A stretch of DNA of 49,810 nt from Thermofilum sp. NZ13 (GTDB lineage Archaea > Thermoproteota > Thermoprotei > Thermofilales > Thermofilaceae). Under the pieces are notes generated by a model that saw nothing but the letters and a program-made list of their open reading frames with translations, made no database searches and was not told the origin of the DNA. The DNA lies in contig NDWX01000012.1 of NCBI GenBank assembly GCA_002855745.1, positions 1 through 49,810 of the forward strand, written 5' to 3'. Both the position numbers and the translations under genes were made by a program. Shown piece by piece: positions 5,912 to 49,810 of this stretch (position 1 is its first letter; each line of letters starts with the position of its first letter).

Positions 5912-6787
5912 ATGCTTAGAGTGACCAACACTTTACCCAGCTCCGAGGAGTTCGACCATGCTCTGTTGCAGTCTCCCATTGCAAACCTCGACCCCCTATA
6001 CGTGAGGCTTAAGGGTGTGGGCGCGGCGCAACTGGCTAGGGCTCTGAGGGCTACTGGAGTAGTAGGGGCGGAGGAGGCCTGGCTACTCGAGGGCTTTTTA
6101 GTGGAGAGGGGGGAGGCGACGATGCCTTTGGCCGCTGCGCTGGCGCCGAGGTCGTGGAGGGAGCTCCTCTACATAGCGGGCTACTGCCAGGAGGCTGGGC
6201 CGGGGAGGGTGATGTTCCTGCCGCACCCAGCCTTGGCGCTGGCGGCGGTTGCCTCGCTTGAGCCCGGGAGGAAAGTATTGGTGGAGGCCGAGGGAGCTGA
6301 GCCCTCGCTTTTCCACCCCCTGGCGCAACTCTACGACTTGACGCTCGCGTATAGGAGCCCGCCTCCCTTCTCTTTCGACTCCTACCGGCTCGACAGGCGG
6401 AGGGCCCTCATATCGCTGCCGAGGGGGTGGGATGGGGTGCCGGCGATGCAGCGCTACTTCGACTACGACCAGGCCGTGGTGGAGGTGGAGGCCCCATTCG
6501 CGCCCAGCGGGAGGCCTGGGCTGGTGGTGTGGAGGGCTAGGCGCGAGGAACTGCTGAGGCTCGCGTTCCCCACGAAGCACGCCCTTGTGAAGGGCTTCCT
6601 GAGGGAGTTTCAGACCGGTGCGGCTGAGGAGCGCTCCGTGCTGGAGTGGCTTAGGGCGGCGGAGCTCAGCGTCTCAGACTACCTGAGGCTGGTGGACTAC
6701 GGCTTCCTGAGGAGGAGCCCGCACCCCGCCGGTGTGACGGTCTCCCTCACGGAGAAGGCGCTGTGGGTGCTCTCGCTTGAGGGCTAG
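5912..6787 (+). CDS. Family C protein: unknown protein with C-terminal winged helix, partner of the SWIM protein
   Basis: 291 aa from the ATG at 5912. A TTG at 5897 is also in frame but lies inside the operator palindrome. The N-terminal two-thirds looks like an alpha/beta fold with Val/Leu strands (RKVLVEAEG, RRALISLPRG) but has no Walker or other catalytic motif that I recognise. The last ~70 residues have a winged-helix pattern (LVDYGFLRR, then a wing and helix ALWVLSLEG). Its stop overlaps the start of the SWIM gene. This is the only full-length copy in the window: C-terminal stubs persist at 25478-25615 and 34222-34350, always next to a SWIM gene, so C and B are an ancestral pair. Confidence 0.6.
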   Translation: MLRVTNTLPSSEEFDHALLQSPIANLDPLYVRLKGVGAAQLARALRATGVVGAEEAWLLEGFLVERGEATMPLAAALAPRSWRELLYIAGYCQEAGPGRVMFLPHPALALAAVASLEPGRKVLVEAEGAEPSLFHPLAQLYDLTLAYRSPPPFSFDSYRLDRRRALISLPRGWDGVPAMQRYFDYDQAVVEVEAPFAPSGRPGLVVWRARREELLRLAFPTKHALVKGFLREFQTGAAEERSVLEWLRAAELSVSDYLRLVDYGFLRRSPHPAGVTVSLTEKALWVLSLEG

Positions 6788-7175
6788 GAGGGAGGAGAGC
6801 AGGCTCGCCTGGGCTTTAGTGAGGTGTGCTGTCTTCGGCTACTGTGACGAAAAGCTGACCGAGGAGCACGGGGACCTCCTCGACGCCCTAGGCGAGCTAC
6901 AGGCGTCTTTCCCCGACAAGCCAGCTGAGTGGTTCTACAGGGCCACGTACCGCCTCCTGGCGGGGAAGGTCGAAAGAGTGGGAAACGAGCACTGGCTCGT
7001 GAAGGGGCTGGCGGAGCTGGGGGACACCTACCCCTGGTACAACGTGTGGATAAGCGAGGGGAAGTACCGCTGCGACTGCTTCTTCAGGGCCTACGGCTAC
7101 GTGAGGAAGGCGAAAATATGCAGCCACATAGCGACGGTCATGCTCTACAGGAGGCAGATGAGGCTCGGGGCCTAG
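6777..7175 (+). CDS. Family B protein: small SWIM zinc-finger protein (intact copy)
   Basis: Up to 132 aa. The start is TTG 6777 overlapping the upstream stop; GTG 6819 is an alternative. The C-terminus carries a SWIM signature, C-D-C then 13 residues then C-S-H, within YRCDCFFRAYGYVRKAKICS, and the preceding WYNVWISEGKY is the usual strand before it. SWIM domains chelate zinc and mediate DNA or protein contacts; they occur in MuDR-type transposases and in Shu/SWS1 recombination proteins. The middle (FPDKPAEWFYRATYRLLAGK) is conserved in the broken copies at 25.1-25.5 and 33.8-34.2 kb. Co-translation with family C suggests a complex. The exact role is unknown. Confidence 0.7.
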   Translation: MRARREESRLAWALVRCAVFGYCDEKLTEEHGDLLDALGELQASFPDKPAEWFYRATYRLLAGKVERVGNEHWLVKGLAELGDTYPWYNVWISEGKYRCDCFFRAYGYVRKAKICSHIATVMLYRRQMRLGA

Positions 7176-19037: not shown

Positions 19038-19128
19038 GGCGTGGAGGCTAGGCTCAAGACCCCCTGCAGGCGAGCTTGGGCTGAAGCGGGAGAAGCTCAG
19101 CCCAGGGTAGCGCGAGGCTGCCCGAGAG
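19038..19128 (+). repeat. Fragment of a duplicated segment (copy 1)
   Basis: About 90 bp nearly identical to 20631-20735, there part of an open frame. This copy has an extra C in a C run (frameshift) and is fused directly to the winged-helix remnant at 19126-19212. Confidence 0.7.
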
Positions 19129-19212
19129 TCTCCAAAGCGTCGCCGTCAAGCCGGTCAGCTCGAGCCACCTGGCGACGCAACCCCAGACCTCGGCGCCAAC
19201 CTTGACAATCAC
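19126..19212 (-). pseudogene. Family A winged-helix gene, 5' fragment (A1)
   Basis: From GTG 19212 it reads as a family A start (VKVGAEVWGCVARWLELTGL), with the family's TATA element at 19230-19240. Homology stops after ~28 codons where unrelated DNA (the 19038-19128 repeat) begins. Compare intact family members at 23400-23726 and 33539-33874. Confidence 0.7.
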
Positions 19213-19362
19213 AGCTAAACGCGAGAGGGGGGCTATAAGCGTTCACACAGGCTGTACTCGCGTTACAAGCGCTACAGAGTATCAAGTAACCCTCCTTCCT
19301 TCTCCTCCTCCTCTTTTGCGGCTGATTCAAGGAGGGGGTGTTAAACTCTATAAAAAATTCCG

Positions 19363-19402
19363 TATGTAGCAATGCTACTTTTTAGCTTTTCCCTAGTTTC
19401 TT
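19363..19402 (+). repeat. E element, truncated (E1)
   Basis: Begins with the palindrome GTAGCAATGCTAC, then TTTTTAGCTTTTCCCT and TTCTTCCCGT. This matches the heads of the E elements at 23835-23901 and 33156-33252. It points away from the A1 remnant, so this locus has been rearranged. Confidence 0.6.
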
Positions 19403-19467
19403 CCCGTACCCGCCCCGTGCCTTCCGCTAACACCCCGCGGGCGCTGATGCATAGAGGAAGTATTGTG

Positions 19468-20387: not shown

Positions 20388-20816
20388 TATTCTTTCGTAG
20401 CTAGGCACGCGGCGGAGCTCAAGGGGTCACCCGAGGCGCTGGACGTGCTCGTCGCAACCCTACAGGCCTTCGCCAACGTGTCTAACCCGAAGATCGCGCA
20501 GGCTATGCTGCTCCTCCTCTGGAGCTACCTGCATAACCCAGACTCCGACTTTAAGTGGGAGCAGTTCCTCGAAGTGCCGGGCACCGTCTCGCTCACCATC
20601 GGCTCGGGGAAGCGGGTGGCTACGGAGGTGTGGGGCAGCGTGGAGGCTAGGCTCAAGACCCCTGCAGGCGAGCTTGGGCTGAAGCGGGAAAGGGTCAGCC
20701 CGGGGGTAGCGCGAGGCTGCCCGGGAGCCTCCATGCCGGCCACGGGCGGCCCGAAAGGCCCGCAGAGAAGAGGTGTGGCTGTAGGAGCACTGGAGGCATG
20801 CATCCACGCGCGCTGA
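20388..20816 (+). pseudogene. Truncated gene fragment carrying the 19038-19128 duplicate
   Basis: The frame is open from ~20388 but its beginning abuts the promoter region of the 67-aa gene without a start of its own. The translated part (for example EALDVLVATLQAFANVSN and LLLLWSYLHN) is a plausible helical protein, GC-rich unlike its AT-rich flanks. From 20631 it matches 19038-19128, then runs into Gly/Pro/Arg-rich non-protein-like sequence. Parent family not recognised; likely the 3' part of a lost gene. Confidence 0.5.
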
Positions 20817-23399: not shown

Positions 23400-23726
23400 C
23401 TAAGCCGACACGCCACCACGCCTCAGGAGCCCCGAGGCCGACTCGCCGCACGCCGCTTCCTCGACGCTGTAGCCGAGCAGCACAAGCAGTCCGCAGGCCC
23501 GCTCCGTCAGGTAGATGTACCTCACGTTGCCTACCACTGCCTCCTTCACGAAGCCAGCTGAGCGGAGCTTCTCCAGGGCGCTGGCTATATACCTCGTGTT
23601 CCTTGTGCCGAAGGCCCTGCTGAGCGGCCTCGTCTGCCTGAGCCTCCAGAGCGTTTTAGTGAGGCCGGTCAGCTCGAGCCACCTGGCTACGCTCGCCCAC
23701 ACCTCGGCGCTAACCTCGACCGTCAC
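23400..23726 (-). CDS. Family A winged-helix protein (A2)
   Basis: 108 aa from GTG 23726, which has the family TATA box (CTTATAAA at 23746-23755) ~25 bp upstream. The frame is also open upstream into a HerA-like gene, but that join is a fusion scar. Pattern: N-terminal helix (VWASVARWLELTGL), helix-turn-helix (SRAFGTRNTRYIASALEKLR), a two-strand wing (FVKEAVVGNVRYIYLTE) and a last helix (ACGLLVLLGYSVEE). This is a classic winged-helix DNA-binding fold. This copy has no frame errors. Its C-terminal Cys-Gly-Glu-Ser tail is shared by other copies. Confidence 0.6.
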   Translation of the reverse strand: MTVEVSAEVWASVARWLELTGLTKTLWRLRQTRPLSRAFGTRNTRYIASALEKLRSAGFVKEAVVGNVRYIYLTERACGLLVLLGYSVEEAACGESASGLLRRGGVSA

Positions 23727-23834
23727 AGCCAAGCGCGTGTGGGAGTTTATAAGCGTTCGCAGGTGCTGTGACCGCAGTGAGCTAAGAGCCTCAAGGGGTT
23801 GCTCGAACACCCTCCCACACCCTCCCTCCAGCCC

Positions 23835-23901
23835 GATGGAAGCGAGGGAAGACGCGGGTCGAACACGGAAGAAACAGGGAAAAGCTAAAAAGTAGCATTG
23901 C
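23835..23901 (-). repeat. E element (E2)
   Basis: Read leftward: GCAATGCTAC, TTTTTAGCTTTTTCCCT, TTCTTCC, GTGTTCGACCCGCG. About 50 bp later come GGTGTTCGAGCAAC and the A2 promoter. This is the standard head of the repeat unit. Its outer edge (~23901) is exactly where homology to HerA stops. Confidence 0.65.
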
Positions 23902-24209
23902 TGCTCTGAGAGCTGAAATACCTGCGAGAATAGATCCACAACGAACTCAGGATCATGCTTAAGAGTCTCACCTCTTTCCAGGATATTCATCGAGAAGTTC
24001 TCGCCCGGAACATAGCGTTTAAGCCCTTTGTACTCTCCGTGCCAATCCAGTATCAGCACTTTTACACCTTTTTTAAAGTACTCCTCAACCAGAACTTTCG
24101 CGGTGTTTGTCTTGCCGCTGCCCGTAGGCCCCACGATAAGAATGTGGCTCTCGGGTATCCTGAGCACAGAGGGCAAATACTTTGACAGGTTCACTTTGAG
24201 GGATTTCAC
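23901..24209 (-). pseudogene. HerA-like (DUF87) ATPase, truncated after Walker A region by a repeat
   Basis: Only ~103 N-terminal residues remain. Walker A is GPTGSGKT, followed by VLILDWHGEYKG and VVDLFSQVFQLSE, all typical of HerA/VirB4-type ATPases that pump or resect DNA. The Walker B, arginine finger and C-terminal half are absent. Homology ends at ~23901, where the E2 element begins. The open frame continues artificially through E2 into the winged-helix gene. Divergent from the RPA-like pair at 24247. A HerA-like protein without these parts cannot hydrolyse ATP normally. Confidence 0.75.
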
Positions 24210-25074: not shown

Positions 25075-25088
25075 TAGCCGATTGAGGC
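25075..25088 (+). repeat. Residual 3' tail of family A
   Basis: CCGATTGAGGCTTATTCG corresponds to the last codons of family A genes (CGGCCTTGAGGCTCATTCG at 49250-49270). Only this tail survives beside B2, showing that an A gene once converged on it. Confidence 0.5.
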
Positions 25089-25487
25089 TTATTCGACGCG
25101 TAGCCGGAGCTGCCTCCGGTGCAGCATGACCGTGGCGATATGGCTGCATATTTTTGCCTTCCTCACGTAGCCGTAAGCCCTGAAGAAGCAGTCGCAGCGG
25201 TACTTTCCCCCGCTTATCCAGACGTTGTACCAGGGGTAGGTGTCGCCGAGCTCCGCTAGCCCCTTCACCAGCCAGTGCTCTGCGCCAACTCTCTCCACTT
25301 TCCTGGCGAGGAGCCTGTACGCAACCCTGTAAAACCACTCAGCGGGCTTGTCGGGGAATGAGGAGGGCAACTCCCCCGAGGCGTCGAGCAGACCCCATGC
25401 TCCCCGGTCAGCTTACCGTCACAGTAGCCGTAGAGGTCGTGCCTTACCAAAGCCCATGCTAGCCTGCTCTCCCCCTCCTAGCCCTCG
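25089..25487 (-). pseudogene. Family B SWIM gene, frameshifted (B2)
   Basis: The C-terminal 93 codons are intact, including the SWIM motif C-D-C...C-S-H and FPDKPAEWFYRVAYRLLA. The N-terminal part (AWALVRHDLYGYCDGKLTGEHG) is in another frame because a base is missing in the run at ~25385-25395 relative to the intact gene at 6777. Without correction no full-length protein is made; a short form starting inside is possible. Confidence 0.75.
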
Positions 25488-25615
25488 CCAAGCCCCAGCA
25501 CCCAGAGAGCCTTCTCCTTGAGCGGGATGGTGAAGCCTACCGGGTGCGGAGCGGAGCACTCCTCAGGGAGCATTATTCGATCAGCCTCTGCTAGCTCTCC
25601 AGCTTCATTTTCACT
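25478..25615 (-). pseudogene. Family C 3' stub (C2')
   Basis: The last ~40 codons of family C (HPVGFTIPLKEKALWVLG, compare HPAGVTVSLTEKALWVLS at the end of the 5912-6787 gene), ending in TAG just before B2. Homology starts at the same internal point as in the copy at 34222-34350, so the truncation predates spread of the unit. Confidence 0.7.
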
Positions 25616-25660
25616 TTCAGTCTTCAAAGCGAAAAGGAGATGAGCACTTTAACCATCTGA

Positions 25661-25873
25661 AGTAGCGGAAAGTCACCAGTTCCCGGCACGGCGACACAGC
25701 AATGGGCCGCTTGCCGGGCGCCGTGCGCGGCTCGATGAGGCGAAGAGGCGCCGAGGCGAGACCCCGCCGCACAGCCCCAAGCGGATTGGCGGGGCGGGCC
25801 GAAGGCGCGGAGCCCATGAAAACCCTTAAAGGGAGCCCGGATCAGTGAAGGGGCAGATGAGCCAGGCGCGGCC
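25661..25873. ncRNA. R element copy 1: candidate structured RNA
   Basis: 213 bp, very GC-rich. The ends are shared with the copy at 34396-34591: AGTAGnGGnAAGTC at the left, CAGTGAAGGGG and CAGATGAG then CCAGGCGCGGCC at the right. The interior differs, but helices persist. Here CCCGGCA pairs with TGCCGGG around a CGGC...GCCG core; the other copy has CCCGCC with GGCGGG around the same core. Compensating changes argue for RNA rather than protein. A short leftward frame (ending ISFSL in both copies) is a weaker alternative. Strand and promoter are not settled. Confidence 0.45.
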
Positions 25874-26519: not shown

Positions 26520-26720
26520 CACCTCCGTGTAGTCCACAACAAATCGTGGCCAGGTTGCTCGAGCTAACCGAGCTGACGGGGGATGCTTTAGCACCTGAGG
26601 CAACCCCAGGCCCATCACCAGAGCCTTCGGCACCCGCAACCGGGGTACATCACCGTTGAGCTGGAGAGGCTCCGCTCAGCGGGCTTCGTGAAGGAGGCTG
26701 TCGTCGGCAACGCAACACTG
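26520..26720 (+). pseudogene. Family A winged-helix remnant (A3)
   Basis: Nucleotide-level matches to family A (GTTGCTCGAGCTAACCGAGC, then TGGAGAGGCTCCGCTCAGCG and TTCGTGAAGGAGGCTGT) in order, but frame-shifted and lacking both ends. No promoter or B partner remains. Confidence 0.65.
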
Positions 26721-28140: not shown

Positions 28141-31227
<3,087 letters not shown>

Positions 31228-31375
31228 TGAGCCTGATCTGCACACTCCTACGCGGCGCTCATTATCCCCATGCGCTCGCATGGGGCTCACGCCCTTCACC
31301 CAGGAGGCTGAGCCTCCTGGGTTGCATCCCAGATTAGCGTGAGGCGCGGTGCGCAGGCTTTTCGACCGGATCAAT

Positions 31376-33112: not shown

Positions 33113-33155
33113 TTACTCGCGGGAAGCTTCCTCTGCATCCCATCATCCGAAACAA

Positions 33156-33252
33156 TGGTATTTTTAGCTCTTCCCTGGATTCTTCCCGTGTTCGACCCGC
33201 GCTTCCCCCGCCTCCCGAGGGTATGGTGAGGGGTTGCTGGTTGGTGTTCGAG
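33156..33252 (+). repeat. E element (E3), adjacent to the rRNA promoter
   Basis: TTTTTAGCTCTTCCCT, TTCTTCCCGTGTTCGACCCG, then GGGTTGCTGG and GGTGTTCGAGC, in the same order as E2 and E4. It begins ~45 bp upstream of the rRNA TATA box. In this copy ~280 bp of extra DNA separate it from the A gene. Confidence 0.65.
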
Positions 33253-33379
33253 CGCGGGCTCGGGCTTGCAGCCACGGTGGCTGTGAAGAACTCCAGTGGC
33301 CTTACCGCGGAGCGGGGGCACTCATAGAGTAGAAGCCAAAAAAGAAAGAGGGGGAGAGAAAAAGGCTTTGTTGCTTTCA

Positions 33380-33494
33380 GCCTAGGAGCCTGAGCGCAGG
33401 TACTCCGAGAGGCCCAGCCCCTCTCCCCTGCCTCCCTCCTCAGCCTCTCTTTCTCAGCCGGCGCGGCGTGGTAGTCCGTGGCTCCGACGAGCAC
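33380..33494 (-). pseudogene. Decayed small ribbon-helix-helix-like gene
   Basis: From GTG 33494 it reads LVGATDYHAAPAEKERLRRE, then frame-shifts. Dropping one base near 33420 gives GLGLSEYLRSGS and a stop. EKERLRREA...LGLSEYLR is the pattern of the two helices of CopG/antitoxin-type ribbon-helix-helix proteins. It is divergent from family A gene A4 across a short promoter region. Small size and the frame error make this tentative. Confidence 0.4.
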
Positions 33495-33508
33495 AACTTG
33501 CGTGAGCG

Positions 33509-33516
33509 CTTATAAC
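33509..33516 (+). promoter_or_regulatory. TATA box of family A gene A4
   Basis: CTTATAAC at 33509-33516, 28 bp before ATG 33539. The same box precedes every family A copy whose 5' end survives (19230-19240, 23746-23755; TTTTATAC at 48952-48959). Confidence 0.6.
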
Positions 33517-33538
33517 TCTCCTCTTGCATTTAGCCTTG

Positions 33539-33874
33539 ATGGTCGAGGTAGACAGGGAGGTCTGGAACTGCGTTGCGAGGTGGCTCGAGCTGACGGGTCT
33601 CACAAGAACGCTGTGGCGCCTGAGGCAGCCCAGGCCTCTCAGCAACTCGTTCAGCACAAGGAACTCGAGGTACATCGCCGTTGCGCTGGAGAGGCTCCGC
33701 TCAGCCGGCCTCATAAAAGAAGCCGTCGTTGGCAAACGCCCGCTACGTCTACCTCACCGAGGGGCCTGCGGACTGCTTGTGCTGCTCGGCTACAGTAGCG
33801 AGGAGCTAATGTGCGGCAAGGCTACCTTGAGGTTTATTCGGCGCAGAGCCTCAGCTGCCTCCTGTGGAGCATGA
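33539..33874 (+). CDS. Family A winged-helix protein (A4), with paired compensating frameshifts
   Basis: 111 aa. The same winged-helix layout as A2 (VWNCVARWLELTGL, RNSRYIAVALERLRSAGLI). Relative to A2 an extra A at ~33735 and a lost base at ~33762 put about ten codons (the wing) in another frame, after which CGLLVLLGYSSEE resumes. The frame stays open, but the wing is nonsense (KRPLRLPHRG instead of a strand-turn-strand). It may be non-functional or carry two sequencing errors. Its 3' end converges on, and overlaps, SWIM gene B3. Confidence 0.55.
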   Translation: MVEVDREVWNCVARWLELTGLTRTLWRLRQPRPLSNSFSTRNSRYIAVALERLRSAGLIKEAVVGKRPLRLPHRGACGLLVLLGYSSEELMCGKATLRFIRRRASAASCGA

Positions 33875-34225
33875 CGGTGGCGATGTGCGAGCATATCCTG
33901 GCCTTGCGCACGTAGCCGCATGCCGGAGAGGCAGCCGCACCTGTACCCCCCTCGCTCACCCGGACATTGCACCAGGGGTACGTGTCGCCCAACTCGGGTA
34001 GCCCCCTGACGAGCCTGTTCTCCCCGCCAACCCTCTACACTTTGCCCGCTAGAAGCCTGTACACAGCACGGTAGAACCACTCCGCGGGCTTATCGGGAAA
34101 AGACGATTACGGCTCACCTAAGGCGTCGAGCAGGTCCCCGCGCTCCTCGACTATCTTATCGCGGCAGTAGCCGAATACGGCGCACATCACTAGCGCCCAG
34201 GCCACTTTGCTCTCACTGCTCCTAG
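33834..34225 (-). pseudogene. Family B SWIM gene, multiply frameshifted (B3)
   Basis: Pieces of the family are readable in different frames (CAVFGYC near 34170, PAEWFYRAVYRLLA near 34080, ARICSHIATVMLHRRQLRL near 33870). At least two frameshifts lie between 33900 and 34110, and the first Cys pair is disturbed. Stop TAA 33834-33836 lies inside the tail of A4. Confidence 0.7.
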
Positions 34226-34350
34226 CCCTCAAGCGAGAGCACTCACGGAGCCTTCTCTGTAACGGAAACGGTTACTCCGGCGAGGTGCGGGCCCTCCTCA
34301 GGTAGCCGTGGTCGATCAGCCTCAGTTAGCTCCCCCAGCTTCGTTTTCAC
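34222..34350 (-). pseudogene. Family C 3' stub (C3')
   Basis: Matches the last ~40 codons of family C (LAGVTVSVTEKAP, then an in-frame TGA, then VLSLEG). Truncated at the same 5' point as the stub at 25478-25615. Confidence 0.65.
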
Positions 34351-34395
34351 TTTCACCTTTCACAGCGAAAAAGAGATAAGACCAAAACCAGGTGT

Positions 34396-34591
34396 AGTAG
34401 TGGCAAGTCCAGTTCCCGCCCCGGCGAATAGCCGTCTGGCGGGTGCCGCGCGCGGCGCGAGGAGGGTATGTGCCCGCGGCGACGCGGGCTGAAGGCCGCT
34501 AGGACGCGGCCCGCCGCGAAAAGGGGCGACCCATGGCCCCGCTAGGGGGCCCTCGGAGCAGTGAAGGGGGCAGATGAGGCCAGGCGCGGCC
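34396..34591. ncRNA. R element copy 2: candidate structured RNA
   Basis: 196 bp sharing both ends with 25661-25873 but diverged inside. Helix CCCGCC/GGCGGG encloses CGGC-GAATA-GCCG. A further helix CGCGGCG/CGCCGCG encloses GGCCGC/GCGGCC, and GGCCCC pairs with GGGGCC near the end. It abuts the secE promoter. Strand unresolved. Confidence 0.45.
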
Positions 34592-48488: not shown

Positions 48489-48803
48489 CTATTCGAACGG
48501 CATTCTGAAAATCTGTATGTAAGGGATGCCGCCCACCTCGAGCACGGCTTCGGGCACTGTTGGAAAAATCTTGGCAAGGTACTCGATGCAGGTCTTACCG
48601 AAGGCCGTGATGCTGTCCGCACGCGCAAGCAAACTTTCAAGCTCAGGAGAGTTCGAGTCGACTAGAATCCCCCCGAAGAACTCCTCCGTAAACCTGATCT
48701 TCACTCTACCGTGGTTAACCTCGCTACCCAGCAGATCCTCGTCGCACATCGCTACGACGGTGTAGCCACCGCTACTGTGAACCTTGACCGATATCCGCTT
48801 CAC
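48489..48803 (-). CDS. DUF424 protein
   Basis: 104 aa from GTG 48803; the longer open frame upstream is inside repeat element E4. VVAMCDEDLLGSEV, FTEEFFGGILVDS and the final VLEVGGIPYIQIFRM match the DUF424 family (CDxELLG...FYGG...GVPHAQ), archaeal proteins often encoded by translation genes. Function unknown. Its promoter region has been replaced or interrupted by E4, which begins within a few bases of the start codon, so expression may have been altered. Confidence 0.8.
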   Translation of the reverse strand: MKRISVKVHSSGGYTVVAMCDEDLLGSEVNHGRVKIRFTEEFFGGILVDSNSPELESLLARADSITAFGKTCIEYLAKIFPTVPEAVLEVGGIPYIQIFRMPFE

Positions 48804-48804
48804 T

Positions 48805-48888
48805 GGTTTCCCCCCGTGTTCGACCCATTGATTCCCCTGCCCCCGTGAGCTTGGAGAGGGGGTTGCTGGTGGGTGTTCGAGCAACACC
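48805..48888 (+). repeat. E element (E4)
   Basis: TTTCCCCCCGTGTTCGACCC, then GGGGGTTGCTGG and the hairpin GGTGTT-CGAGC-AACACC, ~75 bp before the A5 start. The TTTTTAGC head is missing, so the element is truncated at its junction with the DUF424 gene. Confidence 0.65.
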
Positions 48889-48965
48889 TATACGCCCCCT
48901 CGGTTCTTATCAGCCACAGCGTGTGTGTAAGCTTACAATCATCATTTTCATTTTTATACTTAGCT

Positions 48966-49311
48966 GTGATAGTCGAGGTTGGCGCCGAGGTGTGGGAGAA
49001 CGCCGCGGGGTGGCTTGAGGTGACCGGCCTTGCAAGGACGCTGTGGCGCCTAGGGAGCTGAAGCCGCTCAGCAAGGCCTTTTGCCACGAGAAACTCGAGG
49101 TACATCGCCTCGGCACTGGAGAGGCTCCGATCAGCGGGCTTCGTCAGGGGAGGCAGTAGTGGGCAACACGCGCTACGTCTACCTGACGGAGCGTGCCTGC
49201 GGCCTCCTCTTACTGCTCGGCTACAGCATCGAGGAGGTGGGGTGCGGCGAGTCGGCCTTGAGGCTCATTCGGCGCGCAACCGGAGCTACCTCCTGCGGAG
49301 CATCACTGTAG
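48966..49311 (+). pseudogene. Family A winged-helix gene, frameshifted (A5)
   Basis: GTG 48966 after TTTTATAC. It reads VIVEVGAEVWENAAGWLEVT, LARTLWRLG and then a stop in the first frame. Homology continues in other frames through NTRYVYLTERACGLLLLLGY and CGESALRLIRRA to 49311. At least two frameshifts (~49056 and ~49145). Confidence 0.8.
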
Positions 49312-49375
49312 CGATGTGGTTGCAGATCCTGGCCTTCCTTACGTCGCAGTATGCTCGGGAGAAGCAACGGCTGCC
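49275..49375 (-). pseudogene. Family B SWIM gene, terminal remnant (B4)
   Basis: Only the last ~30 codons are recognisable at nucleotide level (TGCGGAGCATCACTGTAGCG and GGCCTTCCTTACGT on the + strand match the C-S-H end of B2 and B3). Beyond ~49375 the similarity ends. Confidence 0.6.
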
Positions 49376-49415
49376 TGCTGAAAAACCCTGAAGTAGCAAT
49401 AATTAGTGTAACGAT

Positions 49416-49810
49416 GTTATACTTTCAGGGTAATCATCGGAACAAATATTACCCCCCTTGTCCAAGGAGGGTATGGAGGCCCGCTGCCGCAGGCATTGGC
49501 CGGTGAGCTGTGACCCGGCCAGGGAGGCGCGGGCCAGGGTGCTTCCCCGAGAAAACTGGCGCCCGTAGCGGGGGAAGAGGGGGCGCCTGCACTCTCGGGG
49601 AAAAGATAGTGAGCGGGAGGGGGTAGCGTAAGGCAGGCCAGCGGGCCCCGGGCACCTAGGCTACGCCGACCCCCTATGTACTAGTGTTTAGGGGGGAGTG
49701 GCGGCCGGGGCCTGGGAGCCCGAGAGCAAGCCCCTTTAAAACACCCTTTTTTACCCGCCCAGCCCACCATTCCACGCTCCTCTGGGACGTGGTGGGACTG
49801 GGCTGGGTGG
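49416..49810 (+). ncRNA. Candidate structured RNA locus with a copy of the 16S leader hairpin (cut by window end)
   Basis: A TATA-like GTTATACTTTC (49416-49426) predicts a rightward transcript from ~49450. Nested helices follow: GGCCCGC/GCGGGCC with internal GGCCGG/CCGGCC (49478-49536); the 16S-leader-like hairpin (49541-49604); GGGGGT...GCGTA with TACGC...ACCCCC (49618-49675); CCCCCTA/TTAGGGGG (49671-49695). After a second AT-rich box (CTTTAAAACA, 49734-49743) there is a long hairpin CCCAGCCCACCA/TGGTGGGACTGGGCTGGG. No protein frame fits. Identity (for example a stable RNA precursor) is not established. Confidence 0.45.

What the first reader, a model, noticed from the sequence alone, without database searches (positions are those of the whole stretch)
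33156..34591. A dispersed composite repeat: E head, winged-helix gene A, convergent SWIM gene B, C stub and R segment, without a transposase
The same ordered parts recur across the window. Here the full order is E3 - A4 - (convergent) B3 - C3' - R2. Elsewhere: E2-A2 (23400-23901), A-tail - B2 - C2' - R1 (25075-25873), E4-A5-B4 (48805-49375), A1/E1 (19126-19402) and A3 (26520-26720). C2' and C3' share the same truncation point, and an orphan A tail remains next to B2, so a single ancestral unit was copied and then decayed. No transposase, terminal inverted repeat or target duplication was seen, so copying may be in trans, by recombination, or by an unknown mechanism. SWIM domains occur in MuDR-type transposases, which makes B a possible mobility accessory.
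Basis: partly seen in the sequence, partly recalled or inferred. Interest (0 to 1): 0.78.

Follow-up and report, generated by a model that had tools for sequence, protein, structure and literature searches.

The report
Decayed RNA-guided jumping gene remnants
The repeated units are broken copies of a mobile element seen in full elsewhere in the same archaeal genome, where it carries a gene for a TnpB-family protein (TnpB proteins are known RNA-guided DNA cutters), a structured guide-RNA-like right end, and two unusual passenger genes, one of them captured from a host gene family.

Summary
The repeat is real and far larger than the window shows. The genome holds about 45 related places, and full copies (2.5-3.5 kb) carry the gene missing here, a TnpB-family protein. 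The full order is left end (E), winged-helix gene A, either SWIM gene B or its 3' tail plus spacer, tnpB, then R. About 25 left and 36 right ends stop at the same base with unrelated flanks. One insertion site is empty in same-genus genome G005. R begins near the tnpB stop codon, folds with compensatory changes and is followed by unique flank, as an omegaRNA scaffold and guide would be. In the finding itself (33149-34591) tnpB is deleted; five copies share that joint. No Y1 or serine transposase was found, so it resembles an IS1341-type element with extra genes. A occurs in no other genome searched. B derives from a SWIM gene family conserved in relatives. A, B and tnpB evolved under purifying selection. 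SWIM as a MuDR-like mobility factor is not supported. How it moves, and whether TnpB still cuts (the usual RuvC-II glutamate is replaced), remain open.

The parts
33149..33538 (+). Left end (E) and leader of the finding's element; left-end hairpin (here GAAACAATGGTATT, consensus GTAGCAATGCTACTTTTTAG)
   Evidence: 25 genomic left ends share this start base, flanks unrelated
33539..33820 (+). Gene A, small winged-helix-like protein; this copy has a short frame-shifted stretch
   Evidence: 48 tblastn matches in own genome, none in 60 relatives; alignment A2; dN/dS 0.26
33840..34106 (-). Gene B, SWIM zinc-finger protein, convergent to A; in-frame TAG here
   Evidence: Pfam SWIM E=0.013, below the curated cut-off; conserved family in relatives
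34107..34341 (.). C: 5' part of B and spacer, ending at the joint where tnpB was deleted
   Evidence: maps to nt ~790-925 of the full element, then jumps to nt 2498; same joint in five copies
34410..34591 (+). R: right end, omegaRNA-like structured segment; the base after 34591 starts the guide-like unique flank
   Evidence: about 36 right ends with one end base; covariation
25082..25873 (+). Second tnpB-deleted copy: A tail, B (open, 25092-25370 minus), C', R (25677-25873)
23416..23904 (-). Left end plus A only; truncates a HerA-type ATPase gene whose 5' part is 23907-24209 (-)
   Evidence: Pfam DUF87/HerA E=1.9e-18
48799..49810 (+). Left end, A, B tail and spacer Z of a full-form element cut off by the contig end
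   Evidence: 77% identical over 1036 columns to nt 24-1042 of the full element at C28
32921..33001 (-). Inverted remnant of spacer Z between the 16S rRNA gene and the finding
6679..7172 (-). B-bearing remnant; B open on plus strand (6777-7175)
19116..19425 (.). Small remnants: A head (19116-19260, minus) and left end (19366-19425, plus)
26545..26711 (+). Fragment of A

Best explanation
The units are copies, mostly truncated, of one TnpB transposon family. The complete element is: left-end hairpin, gene A (winged helix), an optional convergent gene B (SWIM, captured from a host gene family), tnpB, and a right end that is transcribed as an omegaRNA scaffold and reads into the flanking DNA as guide. 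The unit in the finding is a non-autonomous derivative in which a deletion removed tnpB but kept both ends, A, B and R; this derivative exists in at least five copies. Most likely mode of action: TnpB binds the R-derived RNA, uses the right-hand flank as guide, and recognises uninterrupted versions of the insertion site so that the element is restored or retained; tnpB-less copies would depend on TnpB in trans. The strand-transfer step was probably done by a transposase supplied in trans or since lost. Shown here: ends, copy number, tnpB, base-paired R, empty site, shared deletion joint, purifying selection. Inferred: RNA expression, guide use, DNA cleavage, trans-mobilisation, role of A.
For: About 45 related places in a 1.88 Mb genome. 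About 15 near full-length tnpB genes, 62-72% identical, Pfam PF07282 above cut-off, remote match to TnpB-like L79 in PDB. Common end bases at 25 left and about 36 right ends with unrelated flanks. Empty site in G005 at the rqcH/CBS junction, flanking genes adjacent also in G002-G004. R starts within about 90 nt upstream to 30 nt downstream of the tnpB stop; covariation 0/500 shuffles and 96% of cells paired versus 38-50% when slid. Related TnpB and a similar right-end sequence in sister genome G002. dN/dS: tnpB 0.27, A 0.26, intact B copies 0.10.
Against: No Y1 (PF01797) or serine (PF00239) transposase in the genome, so no known strand-transfer enzyme. No conserved target motif (TAM) beside the left ends, unlike IS200/IS605. 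The canonical RuvC-II glutamate is Ala/Val in all 12 aligned TnpBs. Copies are 20-30% diverged, so recent activity is not shown. One element has a perfect 10-bp flanking duplication, unexpected for an IS605-type insertion. No RNA data; R has no Rfam match at gathering score.
Confidence: 0.82

Rival explanations
1. The copies spread only by ordinary recombination and segmental duplication of a chromosomal region, with no transposition.
For: Some left-end+A copies (C4:23416, C33:11872, C1:121390) share flanking sequence from a paralogous neighbouring gene. Exact 174- and 219-bp blocks are shared at contig ends, which suggests recombination or gene conversion between copies.
Against: Common end bases at about 60 ends with unrelated flanks; insertion between rqcH and the CBS gene at a site empty in G005; gene interruptions.
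Confidence: 0.06
2. A different transposase (DDE type or unknown, possibly including A) moves the element with target duplication, and tnpB is only a passenger.
For: Perfect 10-bp flanking duplication at C1:122394/119474 and 6 bp near C1:139136/136322; no TAM; no Y1 or serine enzyme.
Against: The other 10 paired junctions show matches of only 3-4 bases; no inverted repeats; A has no recognised catalytic domain, only a low-confidence winged-helix-like model. DDE families were not searched in the whole genome.
Confidence: 0.15
3. The TnpB-R pairs have been domesticated as RNA-guided regulators (TldR-like), and R copies are kept as guide genes.
For: RuvC-II glutamate replaced in all copies, open frames and purifying selection, R loci without adjacent tnpB, TldR precedent in the literature (PMC13418256).
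Against: RuvC-I and RuvC-III aspartates are invariant and a nearby acidic residue could substitute; no guide matches above a shuffled control in the about 20% of the genome held; many copies are clearly decayed.
Confidence: 0.12

Closest known systems
IS1341-type TnpB-only elements (IS200/IS605 superfamily)
   Same: tnpB between defined ends with no tnpA; hairpin left end; GC-rich structured right end next to the tnpB stop
   Different: Carries two extra genes (winged-helix A; SWIM B in many copies), is 2.5-3.5 kb rather than 1.3-2.4 kb (PMC9956272), has no visible TAM
TnpB / OMEGA systems (ISDra2 TnpB with reRNA)
   Same: RuvC Asp-I and Asp-III, zinc ribbon, RNA-like right end followed by unique flank
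   Different: Canonical RuvC-II Glu replaced by Ala/Val; activity untested; many R copies without tnpB
Fanzor / Ealt TnpB (rearranged RuvC-II)
   Same: Canonical Glu missing; E or D seven residues before the first zinc-ribbon Cys
   Different: Published Ealt spacing is six residues (PMC10711439), and the sister-genome relatives lack the acidic residue at this place
Non-autonomous IS derivatives (MITE-like)
   Same: Internal deletion removes the enzyme gene, both ends kept, derivative multiplied
   Different: No terminal inverted repeats; still carries protein genes A and B

Membership tests
IS200/IS605 (Y1 TnpA) | Y1 HUH transposase | tested here: not met
   PF01797 none in own genome; control genomes positive
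IS200/IS605 (Y1 TnpA) | Conserved target motif 5' of the left end | tested here: not met
   No consensus in 25 left flanks
IS200/IS605 (Y1 TnpA) | No inverted repeats, no target duplication | tested here: inconclusive
   No inverted repeats; 10 of 12 pairs without duplication, one perfect 10 bp
IS607 | Serine recombinase | tested here: not met
   PF00239 none in own genome
IS1341-type | tnpB without tnpA between conserved ends | tested here: met
IS1341-type | tnpB as the only gene | tested here: not met
   A, and B in some copies
TnpB superfamily | Zinc-ribbon TNB domain | tested here: met
   PF07282 27.7-28.8 bits, cut-off 26.3
TnpB superfamily | RuvC D-E-D triad | tested here: inconclusive
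   D225 and D439 invariant; canonical E is A/V; E/D404 may substitute
omegaRNA | Structured RNA at the right end ending at the element boundary | tested here: met
   Sequence-level evidence only: base-pair covariation, position and end
omegaRNA | Expression and guide function | not testable with these tools
   needs RNA-seq and cleavage assays
MuDR / Mutator | MULE DDE transposase with SWIM finger | tested here: not met
   B is a short SWIM protein of a host family, no transposase domain
TldR | Inactivated RuvC with a guide matching host promoters | tested here: inconclusive
   Glu replaced but Asps kept; no guide matches in the DNA held

The most novel reading that the evidence does not exclude
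A TnpB lineage with an altered or inactive RuvC site, served in trans by about 20 dispersed, tnpB-less omegaRNA loci with different guides, and coupled to an element-borne winged-helix regulator (A) and a recruited SWIM protein (B): a multi-guide RNA-directed regulatory or homing network built from one transposon family.
Probability: 0.1. Interest if true: 0.85.

Novelty: new variant of a known kind. Interest (0 to 1): 0.55.

Why it matters
It shows a TnpB transposon family without any tnpA that has reached about 45 places in a 1.9 Mb archaeal genome, acquired an accessory DNA-binding gene found in no other genome searched, picked up a gene from a host family that then stayed under strong selection inside the element, and spawned tnpB-less derivatives that keep the guide-RNA end. 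That makes the open question of how IS1341-type elements move, and whether tnpB-less ends are served in trans, directly testable in one organism.

Tried and rejected
A in 84,980 species' genomes and IMG/VR, and TnpB in IMG/VR: nothing; these scans may leave out the source genome. Y1 and serine transposases: none. A target motif beside the left ends: none. Target duplications: not general. Guide matches elsewhere in the DNA held: 2 against 3 for shuffled guides. An early structure count had helix 3 shifted by one column and was redone. The structure of A (single sequence, pLDDT 60) gave only weak matches, ribosomal eS10 chains first and winged-helix regulators among them, none at E <= 0.001.

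Full report
OBSERVATION. The window is the whole contig C4 of a 1.88 Mb archaeal assembly of 33 contigs. A self-comparison of 58 fetched regions plus the window showed repeat tracts of up to about 3.5 kb, so the window copies are pieces of something longer.

WHAT THE FULL UNIT IS. In the long tracts, R is preceded by an open frame of about 470-515 codons. Its C-terminal part matches Pfam PF07282 (Cas12f1-like TNB domain) above the curated cut-off. A profile of 12 copies finds 'TnpB-like protein L79' among solved structures at E=2e-4. About 15 near full-length copies exist, mostly without internal stops, 62-72% identical to the query. None lies in the window. Full elements run left end (E) - A - [B, or only the 3' tail of B followed by a spacer containing Z] - tnpB - R, 2.5-3.5 kb.

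ENDS AND INSERTION. Aligning all copies gives a left end GTAGCAATGCTACTTTTTAG (25 copies, two weak) and a right end GATGAGCCAGGCGCGGYC (38 pattern matches, about 36 convincing), each with a common end base and unrelated flanking DNA. There are no terminal inverted repeats, and the 30 bases before the left ends show no consensus. Of 12 paired junctions, ten share only 3-4 bases, one has a 6-base match and one a perfect 10-base duplication. At C2:198750-200542 the element separates an NFACT (rqcH-type) gene from a CBS-domain gene; in same-genus genome G005 the two genes abut at this point without an insert, and they are also adjacent in G002, G003 and G004. Another copy truncates a HerA-type ATPase gene at window 23904.

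R IS AN RNA-LIKE RIGHT END. R begins between about 90 nt before and 30 nt after the tnpB stop and comes in two sequence types. The type II alignment (14 copies) folds with 46 pairs: 96% of cells pair, against 38-50% when one side is slid by 1-3 columns, and no shuffle of 500 reached the covariation score. Hairpin 1 carries G-C, A-U, U-A and C-G versions of the same pairs in both types. The last bases, GCGCGG, pair back into the scaffold in the predicted fold, so the unique flank starts where a guide would start. The known ISDra2 reRNA is likewise about 150 nt, overlaps the 3' end of tnpB and ends with about 16 nt of flanking DNA (PMC8612924). Rfam has no family above its gathering score here. 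Sister genome G002 has related TnpBs and right ends of the same style (GATGAGCACCGGCGCGG), but a different cargo gene without a Pfam match.

THE FINDING ITSELF. 33149-34591 maps to nt 1-925 and nt 2498-2683 of the B-type full element; tnpB is missing between these points. The copy at 25082-25873 has the same joint, as do C9, C1:291841 and C2:42713, so a tnpB-deleted derivative has itself been multiplied, or the joint was spread by conversion. 48799-49810 is the left third of a full-form element running off the contig; the 'B4' label is therefore only a B tail. Contig ends of this assembly repeatedly fall inside the repeat.

GENES A AND B. A: dN/dS about 0.26 between copies, like tnpB (0.27); found in none of 60 relatives, in no close or profile match among 84,980 species and not in IMG/VR. 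Its winged-helix character rests on sequence pattern and a low-confidence model. B: SWIM family present in 43 of 61 genomes, usually one copy. In this genome a diverged copy at C1:264771 (62% identical) that lies outside the repeat is the likely resident gene. Four intact element-borne copies have dN/dS about 0.10, so B was selected as a protein. The capture from a host gene is inferred from distribution and divergence; no tree was built.

MECHANISM. No Y1 or serine transposase is in the genome. By organisation the element is closest to IS1341-type elements (tnpB between ends, no tnpA), whose autonomy is itself unresolved in the literature (PMC9956272). TnpB catalytic residues: in the known enzyme these are D191, E278, D361 (PMC10097598). 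Here the two aspartates are invariant, the position of the canonical glutamate is Ala/Val, and an E/D seven residues before the first zinc-ribbon cysteine resembles, but is one residue off, the rearranged glutamate of Fanzor-like TnpBs (PMC10711439). The G002 relatives lack it. The second TnpB family in this genome also reads V-D at the canonical position. So nuclease activity is uncertain.

VERDICT. The repeat is a degenerate, high-copy TnpB transposon family with unusual accessory genes and a tnpB-less derivative: a new variant of a known kind. Confidence is high for the identity of the family, moderate for RNA-guided function, and low for the strand-transfer mechanism.

Noticed in passing
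G000 C12:12046, C14:1008, C19:7807, C22:3522, C1:317776 (L247, L248, L251-L253): A second TnpB-like family of about 385-440 aa with nearly identical RuvC-II motif (VDVPFDESLRNN, no canonical Glu); not tested for accessory genes or right-end RNA.
   Followed up: partly
L286:3255-3710, L288:3394-4170 (G002): In sister genome G002 the related TnpB elements carry a different upstream cargo gene (about 151 aa, no Pfam match), suggesting repeated cargo acquisition by this TnpB lineage.
   Followed up: partly
window:34592-34914 and L288:2632-5434: Both this genome and G002 have a TnpB-family element immediately upstream of the same secE-like/NusG-like gene pair, in opposite orientation; insertion preference or coincidence not tested.
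   Followed up: no
right-end flanks, e.g. window:34592-34605: AAGG occurs 5-12 bases beyond about 9 of 36 right ends, more than expected by a rough estimate; may reflect promoter-like or target preference.
   Followed up: no
C22:1-219, C23:1-219, C29:1-219; C3, C9, C13, C32 ends (174 bp): Exact 174- and 219-bp identical blocks at contig ends inside otherwise diverged copies, suggesting gene conversion or recombination between copies.
   Followed up: partly
window:28101-28145 and 31214-31258: Inverted 45-nt arms flank the 23S rRNA gene, as expected for an rRNA processing stem.
   Followed up: no
window:34342-34409 and solo R copies C1:258262, C2:44803, C7:6898: Several R copies without tnpB share a left boundary about 68 bp upstream of R, with an A-rich conserved stretch (GCGAAAAAGAGATAAG) that could be a promoter for a stand-alone RNA.
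   Followed up: no
window:19061-19107 and 20659-20705: A 47-nt direct repeat (91%) unrelated to the element.
   Followed up: no
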